A stretch of 36,976 bases of DNA, from assembly GCA_900299005.1 (NCBI GenBank), contig OMID01000097.1:1-36976 (forward strand), in the 5' to 3' direction. Shown piece by piece: positions 21,509 through 26,596 of the stretch. Source of the stretch: Oxalobacteraceae bacterium. GTDB taxonomy: Bacteria > Pseudomonadota > Gammaproteobacteria > Burkholderiales > Burkholderiaceae_D. Both the position numbers and the translations under genes were made by a program. The notes under the pieces were generated by a model. That model had not been told where the DNA came from and did no database searches. It saw only the letters and a program-made list of their open reading frames with translations. How positions within the stretch are numbered: position 1 is the stretch's first letter; the number at the start of each line of letters is the position of its first letter.

Positions 21509-22462
21509 ATGCTAGACGTCGCTACCAACGTAATCAATAAAACCAACAGATCAGAATTTTATTCGCCTCCACGGCGGCAATATCAGCAGATTACACAAGA
21601 ATACGATCCGTCGCTCAAAGCGCTCTGGACCTACATGACCCCTGTCAGCATTCCTTGTTTCAATCAGAATCTGGTCGAGGAAATTCATCACAGCTTTCAT
21701 GTGCTTGACGAGAAAAAAGGCCATTTCCAAAAAGAGGACAATTGGTATCCAGTGAACTACAGCGTGATTGCCTCCCGACACCCTAAGGTATTTAATCTTG
21801 GAGGTGATCTCGCCTTGTTCATTAGTCTTATCCGCGAGAAAAACAAAGCAGCCCTAATGCACTACGCACGCCTTTGCGTCGAAGCGCTCTATGTCCGACT
21901 GATCAATTTCAATTCGACAGTAATCACGATATCCGTGGTTCAGGGGGATGCCTTGGGGGGTGGATTTGAATTTGCGCTGTCAAGCAATATCATCATTGCT
22001 GAACAAGGGACACGGCTGGGCTTCCCAGAAATTCTTTTTAGTATGTTTCCTGGCATGGGCGCCTACAGTTTCCTGTTGCGCAAAGTAGGGATGCGTATTA
22101 CTGAAGATTTGATCACCAGCGGGAATACCTACAAAGCTGAAGATTTGTACAAGTTGGGCGTTATTGATTTTGTTGCGCCCACTGGCGAGGGGAAAAATCT
22201 TGCGAATGATTTAATGCGGAAGCAAGAAAGACAGGCTGCCGCCTTAAAAAATATCTATCAGTGTCGCCAGCTCGTCAATCCGATTACCCATGCCGAACTT
22301 CATCAGGTCATTACCCTGTGGGTCGACGCTGCCATGATGATCAGTGAAAAAGATCTGACGACGATGCGCAGGTTATTGAATTCGCAAAGGTATCAACAAG
22401 ACATACCGTCTTCACCCAAATCGGTGGAGAGATCACATGCCTCGGATTTGGTTGCGGCTTAG
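21509..22462 (+). CDS. rpfF: RpfF-type DSF synthase (crotonase family)
   Basis: Crotonase-fold enzyme that fits RpfF, which makes cis-2-unsaturated fatty acid signals (DSF) from acyl-ACP by dehydration and thioester cleavage. The protein has 317 residues. The oxyanion-hole region is QGDALGGGFEFALSSNIIIA. The two glutamates E154 (GGGFE) and E174 (GFPE) are 20 residues apart, exactly as the catalytic E141 and E161 of Xanthomonas RpfF. PEILFSMFPGMGAYSFL follows, also typical. AAAGGAG precedes the ATG at 21509; the longer frame from 21287 is not conserved. It is some 28 residues longer than Xanthomonas RpfF, partly at the N terminus. A kinase of RpfC type lies nearby on the other strand. Confidence 0.88.
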   Translation: MLDVATNVINKTNRSEFYSPPRRQYQQITQEYDPSLKALWTYMTPVSIPCFNQNLVEEIHHSFHVLDEKKGHFQKEDNWYPVNYSVIASRHPKVFNLGGDLALFISLIREKNKAALMHYARLCVEALYVRLINFNSTVITISVVQGDALGGGFEFALSSNIIIAEQGTRLGFPEILFSMFPGMGAYSFLLRKVGMRITEDLITSGNTYKAEDLYKLGVIDFVAPTGEGKNLANDLMRKQERQAAALKNIYQCRQLVNPITHAELHQVITLWVDAAMMISEKDLTTMRRLLNSQRYQQDIPSSPKSVERSHASDLVAA

Positions 22463-22472
22463 GATAAATCAG

Positions 22473-22495
22473 GGGTGCTCACAACGTGAGCACCC
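22473..22495 (+). terminator. Strong hairpin after rpfF
   Basis: A perfect 10-base stem GGGTGCTCAC/GTGAGCACCC with loop AAC starts ten bases after the rpfF stop. No T tract follows, so it may be a Rho-type end or an RNA-stabilising structure, not a classical intrinsic terminator. A further small hairpin ACGTATC-AAA-GATACGT is at 22558-22574. Confidence 0.6.
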
Positions 22496-22602
22496 TCCAT
22501 TGGTTCGGTCGCACCTGCGATCTCATCAGAAGTCCGCCCAGAAATACAGTCTGGGATACGTATCAAAGATACGTTCAGGGCTATGTTCGAAGATTCATTT
22601 AA

Positions 22603-22727
22603 GAGGTTCTATCAACATGAGCGCCGCGAAGCAGCGCGATCGCTGGCAGGGCGGGGACGCCGAAGACAGTACAGAGGTTCGTCAAGGCGCCCCAACGCAG
22701 CCAGTGGCATTTTGATAGAGCCTCTAA
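22603..22727. mobile_element. Small MITE-like element with terminal inverted repeats
   Basis: About 125 bases between rpfF and the next gene. The left end GAGGTTCTATCAACATG (22603-22619) and the right end (22708-22724, reverse complement GAGGCTCTATCAAAATG) pair at 15 of 17 positions. A 12-base direct repeat AGATTCATTTAA flanks it at 22591-22602 and 22728-22739, as a target-site duplication would. The left 60 bases recur at 12996-13055 with five mismatches. The element is GC-rich inside AT-rich surroundings. No transposase is present, so it would need one supplied elsewhere. Mobility is inference. Confidence 0.6.
22617..22715 (+). CDS. Possible 32-residue ORF inside the repeat element
   Basis: The ATG in the left terminal repeat opens a frame of 32 codons whose TGA stop lies in the right terminal repeat, so the whole ORF sits within the element. 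It begins MSAAKQRDRWQGGDA and is hydrophilic. AAGAGG lies about ten bases before the ATG. The related copy at 13010 has the same frame start with one amino-acid change (D to G) and one silent change, but then diverges. It may be a real peptide, the truncated start of a longer protein, or chance; I do not recognise it. Confidence 0.25.
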   Translation: MSAAKQRDRWQGGDAEDSTEVRQGAPTQPVAF

Positions 22728-22755
22728 AGATTCATTTAAAAATTCATTGATAAAT

Positions 22756-22793
22756 CCATTTTTAGAAGTAGCCTGGGCTATCTCTAAAAATGG
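22756..22793 (-). terminator. Hairpin terminator of the diiron-oxidase-like gene
   Basis: Inverted repeat CCATTTTTAGA (22756-22766) and TCTAAAAATGG (22783-22793), continued inwards by TAGCC/GGCTA around a two-base loop. It lies 13 bases beyond the stop of the minus-strand gene at 22807. The stem ends in A/T-rich arms, and the structure is nearly symmetric, so it may serve both converging genes. Confidence 0.65.
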
Positions 22794-22806
22794 AATAATT
22801 TACAGA

Positions 22807-23508
22807 TTAGGCCGCCACAAATTGATCATTCATTTGTTTTGCATCGCAGATGGGTTGCTCAACACCTTTTTTCTTGAAACCAATGATGTTTTTGAATAAA
22901 TAGAAATTCGTGGAAATACTATTTAGCAGGATTAAATGCTGTGTCTGATCGAGCATCAGAAAAAGATGGTTTAATTTCTCGGTATGGTCTTCATCGAGCT
23001 TGGCATGAGAATCCAGAAAATTGAAACCCTGATCCACTTTTCTTCCCATGGACGCAGAAACTGATTGAGCAATACGGCCCCCATACACAAAAGCCAGAGT
23101 CTCCAGTACATAAATCATGCCGAGCACATGGACGGGATTGGTTGAGGCGTAATGATAGTTATAAGCCAACATCGCTTGCACGGGCGATTCAGGCGTTCGC
23201 GAGGGGACGCCAGAAACATCGACATCGAACGCACGAAGGTCATTCAAGACGAGATGCTCATGATCACGCTCCTCAAAGATATGATCATATAAATAGCGTC
23301 TGATGATGTCATAGCGGTCGGCACACCAGCCCGCTGCACAGGCCATCATGGGACAGAAGTTCGAGACCACAGGATACAGCTTCAACAAAAAGCCGATGTA
23401 CTGGTCCTTACTCAAAGAACCAGAAAGCATCGCCTGCATTTGAGGCAAGGCATCTATTTCTTCACAAGACTGCCGAATAAGTTCATCTAATTTATCTGAA
23501 AAATTCAT
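22807..23508 (-). CDS. Heme-oxygenase-like diiron oxidase candidate (iron-containing redox enzyme family)
   Basis: A 233-residue all-helical protein of the heme-oxygenase-like/TenA/PqqC fold (PF14518-like). The six-ligand pattern of heme-oxygenase-like diiron oxidases is visible: E80-x2-H83 (EERDH), E136 (YVLETLAF), and H168-x3-D172-x2-H175 (SHAKLDEDH). Known members such as UndA (fatty-acid decarboxylase) and SznF or BesC use this set to bind two irons and activate O2. No signal peptide is present. A strong GGGAGTAGGGA precedes the ATG. It lies between rpfF (convergent) and rpfC (same strand), so a role in making, modifying or removing a fatty-acid signal is an attractive guess. The substrate cannot be read from sequence; a TenA-like or PqqC-like role is less likely. 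Confidence 0.75.
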   Translation of the reverse strand: MNFSDKLDELIRQSCEEIDALPQMQAMLSGSLSKDQYIGFLLKLYPVVSNFCPMMACAAGWCADRYDIIRRYLYDHIFEERDHEHLVLNDLRAFDVDVSGVPSRTPESPVQAMLAYNYHYASTNPVHVLGMIYVLETLAFVYGGRIAQSVSASMGRKVDQGFNFLDSHAKLDEDHTEKLNHLFLMLDQTQHLILLNSISTNFYLFKNIIGFKKKGVEQPICDAKQMNDQFVAA

Positions 23509-23957
23509 TCCCTACTCCCTGTGTTTAAATCAAAAAATTGATGATGACTGTCTCACGATCCTACAATGCCGAGATACGGCAAAATACTGCCAACGTATCT
23601 GAAGGCCTAGAGACAGACAATTGGTACGTGACACTTTGAAGCAATCCAACTTGTCTCAAAACTTTTTCGTTACAGGCCTGAAAAATGATAGGGTGAGCTT
23701 ACGGTTTTTCAAAAATCCCATAATTTTTCATAATATTGATCACCACTGAGTGATTTTTCTAAGGAAGTATTGATGAATTAAACATCGCATAATTTCTCCT
23801 TTGGGGAATAGCTGCAAGCCTTTGATGTAGCAGGCTACTACGTCGCGCAGCAATGCTGGCTCGTCAGCCCATGGGAGGGGTTTTCAGCATCTTCCCAAAG
23901 CCAACAGGGCGTCGTATTAGTCACTCAAGCAGCAGAACATTTTTTCTGCAATTCATC
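23509..23957. other. Intergenic region upstream of the diiron-oxidase-like gene
   Basis: 449 bases, AT-rich for the most part, between the stop of the sensor kinase and the start of the oxidase-like gene, both on the minus strand. The length suggests that the oxidase gene has its own promoter. A short palindrome GTAGC-AG-GCTAC lies near 23827-23838. No open frame of note, no clear terminator behind the kinase and no recognised operator is seen. Confidence 0.4.
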
Positions 23958-26501
23958 TCAGGATCGCTTTAGCAGAGATGTTAAAGATCGCTGCTGACGC
24001 AGTTGTCGATATTCCTCCAGCTCTTCACAAAGTCGCATAAATATCTTCCTCAGTTGTTGCATGATTTCTGCCGGATAAACTTCAGTGATTGAGATATCCA
24101 GCTTTTCGAGCCGTCTGCAAGCGTTTTTCATGGCAACCGCACCAATGCTCAGCGCCGACCCTTTGAGTGCATGGACAACTTCTCTAAACACATCCATGTC
24201 CTGCGCCAACATCGATTGCTCCAGCGCGTCAAGCATCCGGCGATTCTCCGTGATGAACTCAACGATTAACTCATCCAGAAAATAGAGGTCACTGCTCATT
24301 TGCTCAATGCCGGCCAGGGCTTGCGGGTTAAGAATGGCCTCACCATCCAACAGGAGCACAGGTCGACGTAAAGGAATCACTGTGCGACTCTCTGAACGTG
24401 GAAACATTTGTCGAAAGCGGCCTATCAGGCGGTCGAGCGTGTTGAGGAATAAATCAACTTGTATGGGTTTAGGCAAAAACTCATCGGCCCCGGCATCAAT
24501 GCTCTCTTGGCGAGCCTCCGTCGTTACATTCGCGGAAAACATGATGATGGGCACTCTTCCAGATTGCCCATGCATCAATCGACATAATCTGGCAACATCA
24601 GGGCCCGCGACTACCGGCATATTCATATCGAGAACGATTGCATCGAAAATCCGTTTGTCCACGATATCAAGAGCTTCCTCACCATCCTTGGCCAAGGTGC
24701 AGCGATGACCCGCTCGCTCCAGTATCTTCTGCAGGACTTTGCGGTTAGTGGGATTGTCTTCGGCCACGAGAATTTCGTAACCTGATAATTCGGTGTTCGG
24801 AATCGCCGGTGAAGCGTCCGGCAAGGGGGAGTCCGCAAGCTCTGCGCTGCTGGCATTAGCCTTGCTTCGATTAAGATCATTTATGTGAGCATGCAGAAGA
24901 TTTTCCAGAAATTCTTTTATAACGGGCAGGGATAGTACCGAGTAGAGTCCGGCCACATCCATCAGGGAATCGAGGTCGTTATGGGTCTGTTCATCCTCGC
25001 TTAAAAGGACGATAGTGACCTTCCCCTGAGGCGACGCCTTTCGCAGGGAATCGGTATCCCGGCGGATCATGCTCGCGTACGCCAGAGCAGACTGCGATTC
25101 CTGACGTGTCACGCCAAGAAAAACCAGACGTATCGGATGCCCGGTCAGCAGGGCTTGCTCAAGCAGTGCAACGGCCTCAGTGCTTGTGTGAGCAAGCGCA
25201 GGCGCTTTACTGCCGAGATGTGCCAAAGAGTCGAGCAGGTTTTCATACGTACCGCCGGGTGCGACGACCAAAGGTCTGACCACCTCAAAAGAATCAAAGA
25301 TATGGAGAACTGATTGCTCCGAACGACAGAACTCCAGCTCGAACCAGAAGGTACTTCCCTCACCCTGCGTGCTCTCAAATCCTATGCTGCCATGCATGAG
25401 TTCGACAAGCTGCTTACAGATGGTGGTTCCCAGACCTGTTCCACCAAACCGCCTTGCTGTCGATTCATCCGCTTGTGTGAAGCTGTCAAAAATTTTGGCT
25501 TTTGCGATCTCAGAGATTCCAATACCCGTATCCTTAATTAGGAAACGCAAGCGAACCGCCGATCCTGATTCGCCCGTTTTCTTTACTCGCAGAGATATCC
25601 TGCCTTGCTCTGTAAATTTGACCGCATTACCCAGCAGATTGACAAGTATTTGACGCAAATGATGGGGATCACCCTCAATCCAATAGGGTACATTTTCAGC
25701 GATGCTATGGTGTAGTTCAATTTGAAAAGGATCGATTTGGTAGGAAAAGATGTCCTGTATCCCTTGTATCAACTGATACAAGTCGAAAGACACATTTTCG
25801 ACGCACATTTTTCCTGCTTCAATTTTCGAGAAATCGAGCACATCTTCAATCTGTGACAACATCACCTTCGAGGTATTCGTCATGGAATTGATTATGTCTC
25901 TCTGTTCTCTATCTAGGGGTGTGCTTTTCAATAGATCGACCATACCGATGATGGCATTGAGTGGGGTGCGCAGCTCATGACTGACCGAGCAGATAAACGT
26001 GCGCTTTGCCTGATTTGCCTCCTCTGCACGATCTAACGCATTTCGCAAGCGATTTACAAAAGTGTTGAAATAAAGCGTAATCAGCAAGGTGCCAAGCCAC
26101 AAACCGAGCGACAATCCTAACTCTTCATACCAGTAGGGCAGCATGAAAATCACGAAGCCAAAACTCAGCAGTGACGTTCCTAGCGTGATGAATAAATATT
26201 TGGTGCCAAACCGAAATCCATAGCCGATGATGATCCACTGGTACAAAAAAAACAGTGGCGCCGCCTTGCTTTCGGCAATGATGAACAAGTAGGTCAGGGT
26301 TCCTACATCGAGAATGATCGCAGTAACACGACGTGATGGTTTTTCGCCTGGCCAGATCAGAACCCAAATCGTCAGCGCGGTGGCGATTACGACAAATCCG
26401 AGCAACACGCATACCGGATCAAGATGAAAGCCCAGTGTGTCGAAATTCCCCGGAAAGACAGCTCTTGAGAAATAGATCAACAAAGCCATGCCGATCAACA
26501 C
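23958..26501 (-). CDS. rpfC: RpfC-type hybrid sensor histidine kinase (N terminus frame-disrupted)
   Basis: DSF sensor of RpfC type, 847 residues from the GTG at 26501. Five or six membrane helices (residues 1-146) form the input domain. HisKA has H175 in SVSHELRTP; HATPase shows N292 (NLLGNAVKF), DTGIGI (324-329) and GGTGLGT. Residues 405-540 look like a receiver that lost its aspartate. A true receiver follows (576-690, EDN at 581-583, D625, K678), then an HPt domain with H777 (VVHALKGSA). The reading frame continues before the GTG as RLNAIVDLLIGKRDSELEQ, which resembles the RpfC N terminus, but has no start codon; an ATG at 26596 would join it if an A8 tract (26576-26583) had one more base. 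Xanthomonas RpfC has 726 residues. Confidence 0.85.
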   Translation of the reverse strand: MLIGMALLIYFSRAVFPGNFDTLGFHLDPVCVLLGFVVIATALTIWVLIWPGEKPSRRVTAIILDVGTLTYLFIIAESKAAPLFFLYQWIIIGYGFRFGTKYLFITLGTSLLSFGFVIFMLPYWYEELGLSLGLWLGTLLITLYFNTFVNRLRNALDRAEEANQAKRTFICSVSHELRTPLNAIIGMVDLLKSTPLDREQRDIINSMTNTSKVMLSQIEDVLDFSKIEAGKMCVENVSFDLYQLIQGIQDIFSYQIDPFQIELHHSIAENVPYWIEGDPHHLRQILVNLLGNAVKFTEQGRISLRVKKTGESGSAVRLRFLIKDTGIGISEIAKAKIFDSFTQADESTARRFGGTGLGTTICKQLVELMHGSIGFESTQGEGSTFWFELEFCRSEQSVLHIFDSFEVVRPLVVAPGGTYENLLDSLAHLGSKAPALAHTSTEAVALLEQALLTGHPIRLVFLGVTRQESQSALAYASMIRRDTDSLRKASPQGKVTIVLLSEDEQTHNDLDSLMDVAGLYSVLSLPVIKEFLENLLHAHINDLNRSKANASSAELADSPLPDASPAIPNTELSGYEILVAEDNPTNRKVLQKILERAGHRCTLAKDGEEALDIVDKRIFDAIVLDMNMPVVAGPDVARLCRLMHGQSGRVPIIMFSANVTTEARQESIDAGADEFLPKPIQVDLFLNTLDRLIGRFRQMFPRSESRTVIPLRRPVLLLDGEAILNPQALAGIEQMSSDLYFLDELIVEFITENRRMLDALEQSMLAQDMDVFREVVHALKGSALSIGAVAMKNACRRLEKLDISITEVYPAEIMQQLRKIFMRLCEELEEYRQLRQQRSLTSLLKRS

Positions 26502-26596
26502 CCGAATACTTGCCTGTTCGAGCTCGCTGTCGCGCTTACCAATCAGTAAATCGACAATGGCGTTGAGTCTGTGCCAAAAAAAATGAAGGGTCGCAT
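26502..26596 (-). pseudogene. rpfC: Out-of-frame 5' end of rpfC (A8 tract)
   Basis: Reading upstream of the GTG at 26501 in the same frame gives RLNAIVDLLIGKRDSELEQ and on to WHR and FF, with a stop further up but no ATG, GTG or TTG. The ATG at 26594-26596 starts MRPFIFF in the neighbouring frame and meets this sequence at the run of eight A (T on the coding strand) at 26576-26583. One extra base gives a continuous protein of about 879 residues. It may be a sequencing error, a true mutation or a phase-variable tract. Confidence 0.6.

What the first reader, a model, noticed from the sequence alone, without database searches (positions are those of the whole stretch)
21509..26596. DSF-type signalling island: RpfF synthase, a diiron-oxidase-like enzyme and an RpfC-type sensor
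Seen: an RpfF-like crotonase with both catalytic glutamates, an RpfC-like hybrid kinase with HPt domain, and between them a gene of the heme-oxygenase-like diiron family. The stretch is visibly more AT-rich than its flanks and lies between can/panB and dnaJ. Known: in Xanthomonas the core is rpfB-rpfF-rpfC-rpfG without such an oxidase. Inference: the oxidase may tailor, oxidise or degrade the fatty-acid signal, giving a DSF variant, or respond to it. RpfG and RpfB are missing here, so the output arm must lie elsewhere or be another regulator.
Basis: partly seen in the sequence, partly recalled or inferred. Interest (0 to 1): 0.8.

Follow-up and report, generated by a model that had tools for sequence, protein, structure and literature searches.

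The report
Oxygenase built into DSF signalling locus
Next to the genes that make and sense a fatty-acid cell-to-cell signal, this bacterium and many of its relatives carry a gene for a two-metal oxygenase that rarely strays from those genes, so it probably changes, destroys or uses what the signal-making enzyme releases.

Summary
In detail: rpfF (21509-22462 +), a PF14518 heme-oxygenase-like dimetal oxygenase (HDO, 22807-23508 -) and an rpfC-type hybrid kinase (23958 to beyond 26588, -) lie between can/panB and dnaJ/dnaK. In the genus sample 14 of 21 genomes have this HDO, each beside rpfF and rpfC. In the family sample 21 of 392 have it at high score, all within 500 bases of rpfF. Over all samples, 26 of 27 high-scoring HDOs sit beside rpfF, in three arrangements. 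The 26 form one clade (SH-aLRT 99, quick tree), apart from a commoner HDO class in a T_hemolysin/AMP-ligase/SDR operon. All six 3-His/3-carboxylate positions are invariant; dN/dS is 0.04-0.23. Against a simple story, seven related loci keep rpfF-rpfC without the HDO. The AT-richness is old, not a fresh island. The genome has no HD-GYP RpfG; relatives have RpfG or a REC-EAL regulator next to rpfC. Best reading: the HDO oxidises medium-chain fatty acids released by RpfF (the signal, or saturated by-products as UndA does). Substrate and reaction are inferred. The searches made found no paper linking an HDO to rpf genes.

The parts
21509..22462 (+). rpfF-type crotonase (PRK08788 family), presumed DSF-type signal synthase
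   Evidence: alignment to RpfF 3M6M with both glutamates kept
22807..23508 (-). heme-oxygenase-like dimetal oxygenase (HDO) of the rpf-linked subfamily; ligand positions E80, H83, E136, H168, D172, H175
   Evidence: PF14518; invariant ligands; alignment to UndA, CADD and 3DDE; one copy in the genome
23958..26588 (-). rpfC-like hybrid sensor kinase (hydrophobic input region, HisKA, HATPase, REC, HPt); the N-terminal start is uncertain
26514..26537 (-). putative DSF sensor motif KRDSELEQ ahead of the first hydrophobic stretch
   Evidence: compared with Xcc RpfC residues 15-22 in PMC5391125 (passages)
26576..26596 (-). T8 run and upstream ATG (26594-26596) out of frame by one with rpfC
22473..22495 (.). 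terminator-like hairpin just after rpfF (pattern match on the minus strand)
   Evidence: consensus match only
22750..22799 (.). 24-nt-arm inverted repeat between the 3' ends of rpfF and HDO, a possible terminator
   Evidence: not among the terminator-like sites

Best explanation
This is a DSF-type quorum-sensing locus, shared with other Burkholderiales-level relatives, with an added O2-activating dimetal oxygenase. RpfF releases free medium-chain fatty acids: cis-2-enoic signal plus saturated C10-C12 acids from its thioesterase activity. The HDO, usually co-directional with rpfC, oxidises one of these free acids. This could (a) remove or alter the signal, standing in for the turnover role that the acyl-CoA ligase RpfB has in Xanthomonas, or (b) turn the saturated by-product into an alkene-like product, as UndA does. 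Either would make signalling depend on oxygen and iron. RpfC senses the free acid and passes phosphate to RpfG (REC-HD-GYP), to a REC-EAL protein, or in this species to an unidentified regulator. Shown here: gene linkage, clade, ligand conservation, purifying selection. Inferred: substrate, reaction, effect on signalling, phosphate route.
For: Genus: 14 of 21 genomes have the HDO, 16 of 21 have RpfF over cut-off, and each of the 14 has it beside rpfF with rpfC on the other side (for 13, for the window). Family sample: 21 of 392 genomes have an HDO at >=230 bits, 48 of 392 have RpfF, all 21 HDOs lie within 500 bases of RpfF; hypergeometric p 7e-22, or 2e-8 with the own genus left out (genomes are related, so these overstate). 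Three arrangements keep the genes together. The 26 rpf-linked HDOs form one clade, SH-aLRT 99. Six ligand positions are invariant in 26 of 26. dN/dS is 0.04-0.23 in 7 close pairs. Several subgroups recur in the HDO and RpfF trees, by eye. From papers: Xcc RpfF, as thioesterase, works best on C10:0- and C12:0-ACP and releases free acids (PMC4542539, passages); UndA, an HDO, turns mid-chain fatty acids into 1-alkenes (PMC13108848, passages). The 34 columns invariant in 21 rows hold no Arg or Lys, whereas the other HDO class has two Arg columns at 92% or more; this fits an apolar substrate.
Against: The HDO is absent from seven loci with rpfF and rpfC inside the same RpfF clade, so signalling can do without it. 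Similarity to UndA itself is weak (E 2e-4). UndA removes a beta hydrogen (recalled), which a cis-2-enoic acid lacks at an sp3 carbon. One HDO of the strong class is not near rpf genes (G897). HDOs act on amino acids as well as fatty acids. In this window 449 bases separate HDO and rpfC, so co-transcription here is not shown. No structure of usable confidence was obtained.
Confidence: 0.5

Rival explanations
1. The HDO makes a separate small molecule (for example from an amino acid) and is kept in the locus as a quorum-regulated output gene, co-transcribed with rpfC but not touching the signal.
For: Characterised HDOs act on fatty or amino acids (PMC13108848 section 4). The HDO is downstream of rpfC and often nearly contiguous with it. 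It can be missing while rpfF-rpfC stay.
Against: No further gene was seen to recur with it in the neighbourhoods (by size and order, not tested systematically). In G648 it stands upstream of rpfF rather than downstream of rpfC. Its invariant columns show no Arg or Lys (what this says about the substrate is inference).
Confidence: 0.25
2. The HDO is a protective, iron- or oxygen-handling protein, like Acinetobacter DtpC, which tunes RpfC or RpfF under oxidative stress without a dedicated fatty-acid substrate.
For: DtpC is a predicted HDO whose ligand residues are needed for desiccation tolerance (PMC13232832, passages).
Against: DtpC is in an operon with katE, not with signalling genes. I saw nothing in the locus that ties it to oxidative stress.
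Confidence: 0.1
3. A passenger gene: the HDO lies in the locus by history alone and has no role tied to DSF.
For: Several lineages lack it.
Against: Linkage survives rearrangement in three arrangements, 26 of 27 placements, purifying selection.
Confidence: 0.05
4. An AT-rich island gained recently by this strain as a unit.
For: GC 0.44-0.49 against 0.56-0.57 in the flanks.
Against: Lower GC than the flank in 10 of 10 loci measured, window included, with or without the HDO; shared site in the genus. The 16 plasmid records matched hold only parts of the can gene or a short kinase piece.
Confidence: 0.03

Closest known systems
rpf/DSF system of Xanthomonas (rpfB-rpfF-rpfC-rpfG)
   Same: RpfF-type crotonase with both glutamates, RpfC-type hybrid kinase with D, S, E, Q sensor residues; rpfF and rpfC convergent (for Xanthomonas recalled; seen in many loci)
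   Different: an HDO gene stands between rpfF and rpfC; no rpfB in the locus; no HD-GYP match in this genome
UndA, fatty-acid decarboxylating HDO
   Same: HDO superfamily; ExxH, E and HxxxDxxH ligand positions align; a plausible medium-chain acyl substrate
   Different: weak sequence similarity (E 2e-4); activity untested; gene context of UndA not examined
3DDE, TENA/THI-4-like protein with heme-oxygenase fold
   Same: best solved relative by profile (E 1e-22), same ligand pattern
   Different: named in the PDB as a domain of unknown function
HDO class in the T_hemolysin / AMP-ligase / HDO / SDR operon
   Same: nearest paralogue class, same six ligands
   Different: different operon (all four parts in 13 of 15 loci checked), separate clade, 16 diagnostic columns
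Acinetobacter DtpC
   Same: predicted HDO with a role outside a classical biosynthetic cluster
   Different: operon with katE; desiccation role

Membership tests
DSF synthase RpfF | crotonase of the PRK08788 (NF006452) family | tested here: met
   328.5 bits, cut-off 177
DSF synthase RpfF | both active-site glutamates | tested here: met
   aligned with 3M6M; their roles are recalled
DSF synthase RpfF | NCBIfam RpfF equivalog NF053515 cut-off | tested here: not met
   216.8 bits, cut-off 550. Not filed as that equivalog, only as an RpfF-type PRK08788 crotonase
DSF synthase RpfF | makes cis-2-enoic acids from 3-hydroxyacyl-ACP | not testable with these tools
   needs enzyme assay
RpfC | HisKA, HATPase, REC, HPt in order | tested here: met
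   phospho-acceptor motifs located
RpfC | short N-terminal sensor with R15, D17, S18, E19, Q22 | tested here: inconclusive
   KRDSELEQ keeps D, S, E, Q and has K for R15 (residues from PMC5391125), but the coding start that would include it is uncertain
RpfC | five transmembrane helices | tested here: inconclusive
   hydropathy peaks in about five to six places
HDO superfamily | Haem_oxygenas_2 profile over cut-off | tested here: met
   41 bits, cut-off 28.9
HDO superfamily | 3-His/3-carboxylate ligand set | tested here: met
   E80, H83, E136, H168, D172, H175 invariant in 26 of 26 rpf-linked and 62 of 62 distinct other rows
HDO superfamily | seven-helix heme-oxygenase fold | tested here: inconclusive
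   AlphaFold2 on two sequences gave mean pLDDT 36
HDO superfamily | binds two metals and activates O2 | not testable with these tools
   needs purified protein
UndA | decarboxylates mid-chain fatty acids to 1-alkenes | not testable with these tools
   not filed as UndA
canonical rpf system with RpfG | REC-HD-GYP RpfG | tested here: not met
   no PF13487 match in this genome; present beside rpfC in L166, L168, L169

The most novel reading that the evidence does not exclude
Some Burkholderiales use an oxygen-dependent dimetal enzyme as a lasting part of DSF quorum sensing, making an oxidised, so far undescribed DSF-family signal or switching the signal off in an O2-gated way; the rpf-linked HDOs are a new functional subfamily.
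Probability: 0.35. Interest if true: 0.8.

Novelty: new variant of a known kind. Interest (0 to 1): 0.6.

Why it matters
DSF signals are known to be made by RpfF and removed by RpfB-type ligases. A conserved oxygenase inside the locus would add an oxidative step to a well-studied quorum-sensing system and could give new signal structures or an oxygen gate on signalling. It also gives one of the many functionally unassigned HDO groups a short, testable list of candidate substrates.

Tried and rejected
Recent-island reading: rejected on synteny and shared low GC. Burkholderia-style output beside this rpfF: not at this locus. Other RpfFs of the family (L279, L282, L283, L287, L290, L291, L293) have a neighbour that matches the REC-EAL query (that these neighbours are RpfR is recalled, not tested), and those seven RpfFs lie on a separate, long branch. 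RpfG elsewhere: no HD-GYP match in the genome; the five EAL proteins are GGDEF-EAL and none showed a receiver domain in the stretches scanned, three of which start at the locus edge. Sensor-motif shift tied to the HDO: the motif varies with and without the HDO; my pattern found no motif in many alphaproteobacterial rows, so no test was made. AlphaFold2 on window + L002 failed (pLDDT 36); no fold search was run. Viral contigs: no HDO relative. Plasmids: no trio. Rfam: no match in the window at gathering score. In one search one protein of L271 was given in a wrong frame; that row is not used. The greedy ORF picker hid true genes behind antisense ORFs in several loci (L267, L269, L270, L288 among them); tblastn corrected this. 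Gene models of relatives are stop-to-stop ORFs, so distances between genes are approximate.

Not done: of the 27 family-sample genomes with RpfF but no strong HDO, wider neighbourhoods were fetched for 18; L292 (G042) was left out of the tree because its rpfF was not picked up in my first listing; 9 were not fetched widely. G010's rpfF lies at a contig edge with no rpfC match on the fetched stretch, so its lack of an HDO is uninformative. The genomes held are a sample, and the samples overlap.
Full report
What is there. The window (G000:C97; genome of 2.92 Mb, 122 contigs, 99.9% complete) holds rpfF at 21509-22462 (+), a 233-residue PF14518 protein at 22807-23508 (-) and an rpfC-type hybrid kinase from 23958 to beyond 26588 (-), between panB/can and dnaJ/dnaK. 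RpfF passes the PRK08788 model (328.5 bits, cut-off 177) but is far under the NCBIfam RpfF equivalog cut-off (216.8 against 550), so I call it RpfF-type. Its two glutamates align with those of solved RpfF 3M6M (roles recalled). The kinase has HisKA, HATPase_c, REC and HPt and, ahead of the first hydrophobic stretch, KRDSELEQ. In Xanthomonas RpfC, R15, D17, S18, E19 and Q22 are reported as essential for detecting DSF (PMC5391125, passages read); D, S, E and Q are kept here. The nearest relative, L002 (an Oxalobacteraceae MAG), has an ATG in frame with the same motif.

The oxygenase travels with rpf genes. In the genus sample 14 of 21 genomes have the HDO and 16 of 21 have RpfF over the PRK08788 cut-off. 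Each of the 14 HDOs lies next to rpfF, with rpfC on the other side (for 13, for the window). Three of these genomes (G002, G012, G014) also have a second, distant HDO (29-31% identity) elsewhere. Of the two RpfF genomes without the HDO, G019 has a plain rpfC-rpfF pair at the same site, and G010's rpfF sits at a contig edge and says nothing. G009 has shortened rpfF and rpfC and no HDO. In the family sample 61 of 392 genomes match the HDO profile, but only 21 score 230 bits or more; the next is at 150. RpfF over cut-off is in 48 of 392, which include all 21, with match-to-match gaps of 115 to 471 bases. The hypergeometric p is 7e-22, or 2e-8 without the own genus; relatedness makes both too small. 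The order sample (399 genomes) adds five strong HDOs: G454, G491, G654 and G761 beside rpfF, and G648 beside a divergent rpfF. The class sample (369) adds G897, with no rpf gene matched in the 15 kb fetched. The phylum sample (374) adds none. So 26 of 27 strong HDOs sit beside rpfF. Scores are clearly split: 218 bits and up for this class, 173 and down for the rest. The samples overlap, and those above the genus are draws from larger groups.

Arrangement. In the genus loci fetched widely, the order is dnaK-dnaJ-rpfC-HDO, then rpfF on the other strand, then can-panB where the contig reaches that far. In three genomes of another genus rpfC, HDO and rpfF run the same way, with no dnaJ, can or panB match in the 15-16 kb fetched (L163-L165). 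In G648 the HDO stands upstream of rpfF on its strand and rpfC faces them (L270). Upstream of rpfC there is a REC-HD-GYP regulator in L166, L168 and L169 or a REC-EAL regulator in L163 and L165; L266 and L267 have an RpfG match there too; L164 has neither, its upstream gene being beta-lactamase-like. This genome has no HD-GYP match, and 19 of 21 genus genomes have none. It has 5 EAL and 6 GGDEF matches, all five EAL proteins being GGDEF-EAL. The output arm is therefore open.

Family history. A quick tree of 122 RpfF rows puts 33 rows of the same order (L002 by its name) in one starred group; 25 have the HDO and 8 do not. The eight are G019, G010, G043, G084 and four rows of one genus. G010 is uninformative; the other seven have rpfF and rpfC and no HDO match in the locus. 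G043 has an HDO of the other class on another contig. The label needs 7 changes on the tree against a shuffled mean of 23.8. One gain with several losses fits, but the tree cannot tell gain from loss. L270 is a long branch and its place is unsure. A quick tree of 96 HDO rows (88 distinct) puts all 26 rpf-linked rows in one clade (SH-aLRT 99), apart from 70 others. Of 15 loci of the weaker classes that I fetched widely and checked, 13 have all four parts T_hemolysin - AMP ligase - HDO - SDR; L174 and L175, the weakest, do not. Absence of the HDO in L003-L081 rests on ORFs in those loci only, and some of those contigs are short.

The enzyme. E80, H83, E136, H168, D172 and H175 are invariant in 26 of 26 rpf-linked rows and in 62 of 62 distinct others. 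The same positions align with UndA, CADD (with small insertions) and 3DDE, and match the 3-His/3-carboxylate set described for HDOs (PMC13108848, passages and section 4). Sixteen columns set the rpf class apart. Among the 34 columns invariant in the 21-row alignment there is no Arg or Lys; the other class has Arg at two columns in 92% or more. No NCBIfam family was listed for the window protein at E 0.001, and none reaches its cut-off for the L163 and L168 relatives. dN/dS is 0.04 to 0.23 in seven close pairs, against 0.04 to 0.08 for rpfF in the same pairs. AlphaFold2 on two sequences failed (pLDDT 36).

Mechanism. Xcc RpfF has thioesterase and dehydratase activity, with C10:0- and C12:0-ACP as the best thioesterase substrates, and RpfB is said to counteract the thioesterase (PMC4542539, passages). 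UndA turns mid-chain fatty acids into 1-alkenes (PMC13108848). Free C10-C12 acids from RpfF are thus obvious candidate substrates for an HDO kept beside it. I commit to oxidation of an RpfF product, at 0.5. I put turnover or tailoring of the cis-2-enoic signal slightly ahead of an UndA-like use of the saturated acid. Loci with rpfF-rpfC and no HDO argue that RpfC can sense the unmodified acid, which favours turnover or a side product over an obligatory tailoring step.

Literature. Searches of the held library found no paper with RpfF, RpfC and heme oxygenase-like, none with diffusible signal factor and iron-containing redox enzyme, and five with RpfF and heme oxygenase (listing only; judged by titles and abstract starts to be about other things). 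A search for at least two of diffusible signal factor, UndA, undecene and diiron gave 64 papers, of which 10 were listed; none of the ten holds 'diffusible signal factor'. The HDO review has no occurrence of 'quorum' or 'Rpf' in its main text. Ten papers on DSF turnover (16 found) were seen as a listing only. Papers outside this library were not searched, so the novelty claim is limited to it.

Noticed in passing
window 26576-26596: A T8 run (minus strand) puts the upstream ATG of rpfC one base out of frame with the sensor stretch; a frameshift or assembly error. In G007 (L134) rpfC is also split over two ORFs.
   Followed up: partly
L130 4953-6880 (G009): Shortened rpfF and rpfC overlap tail to tail and no HDO matches in the genome: a decayed locus.
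   Followed up: no
L136, L137, L170-L173, L176, L272-L277: An operon of thermostable-hemolysin-like protein, AMP ligase, HDO and SDR in 13 of 15 loci checked; a search for a paper with at least three of four part names found none.
   Followed up: partly
L163 3712-5007; L165 4134-5366: A REC-EAL response regulator stands where RpfG (REC-HD-GYP) stands in related loci, so the c-di-GMP output enzyme seems to have been swapped.
   Followed up: partly
window 22598-22727: A long imperfect hairpin with ends like AGAGGTTCTATCAA / TTGATAGAGCCTCT between rpfF and the HDO; possibly a small mobile or repeat element.
   Followed up: no
L294 1435-3564 (own genome C58): A GGDEF-EAL protein with a heme-NO-binding-associated (HNOBA) match.
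   Followed up: no
L271 7049-7831 (G897): The one strong-class HDO with no rpf gene matched nearby; a ferrochelatase match lies in a long neighbouring ORF.
   Followed up: partly
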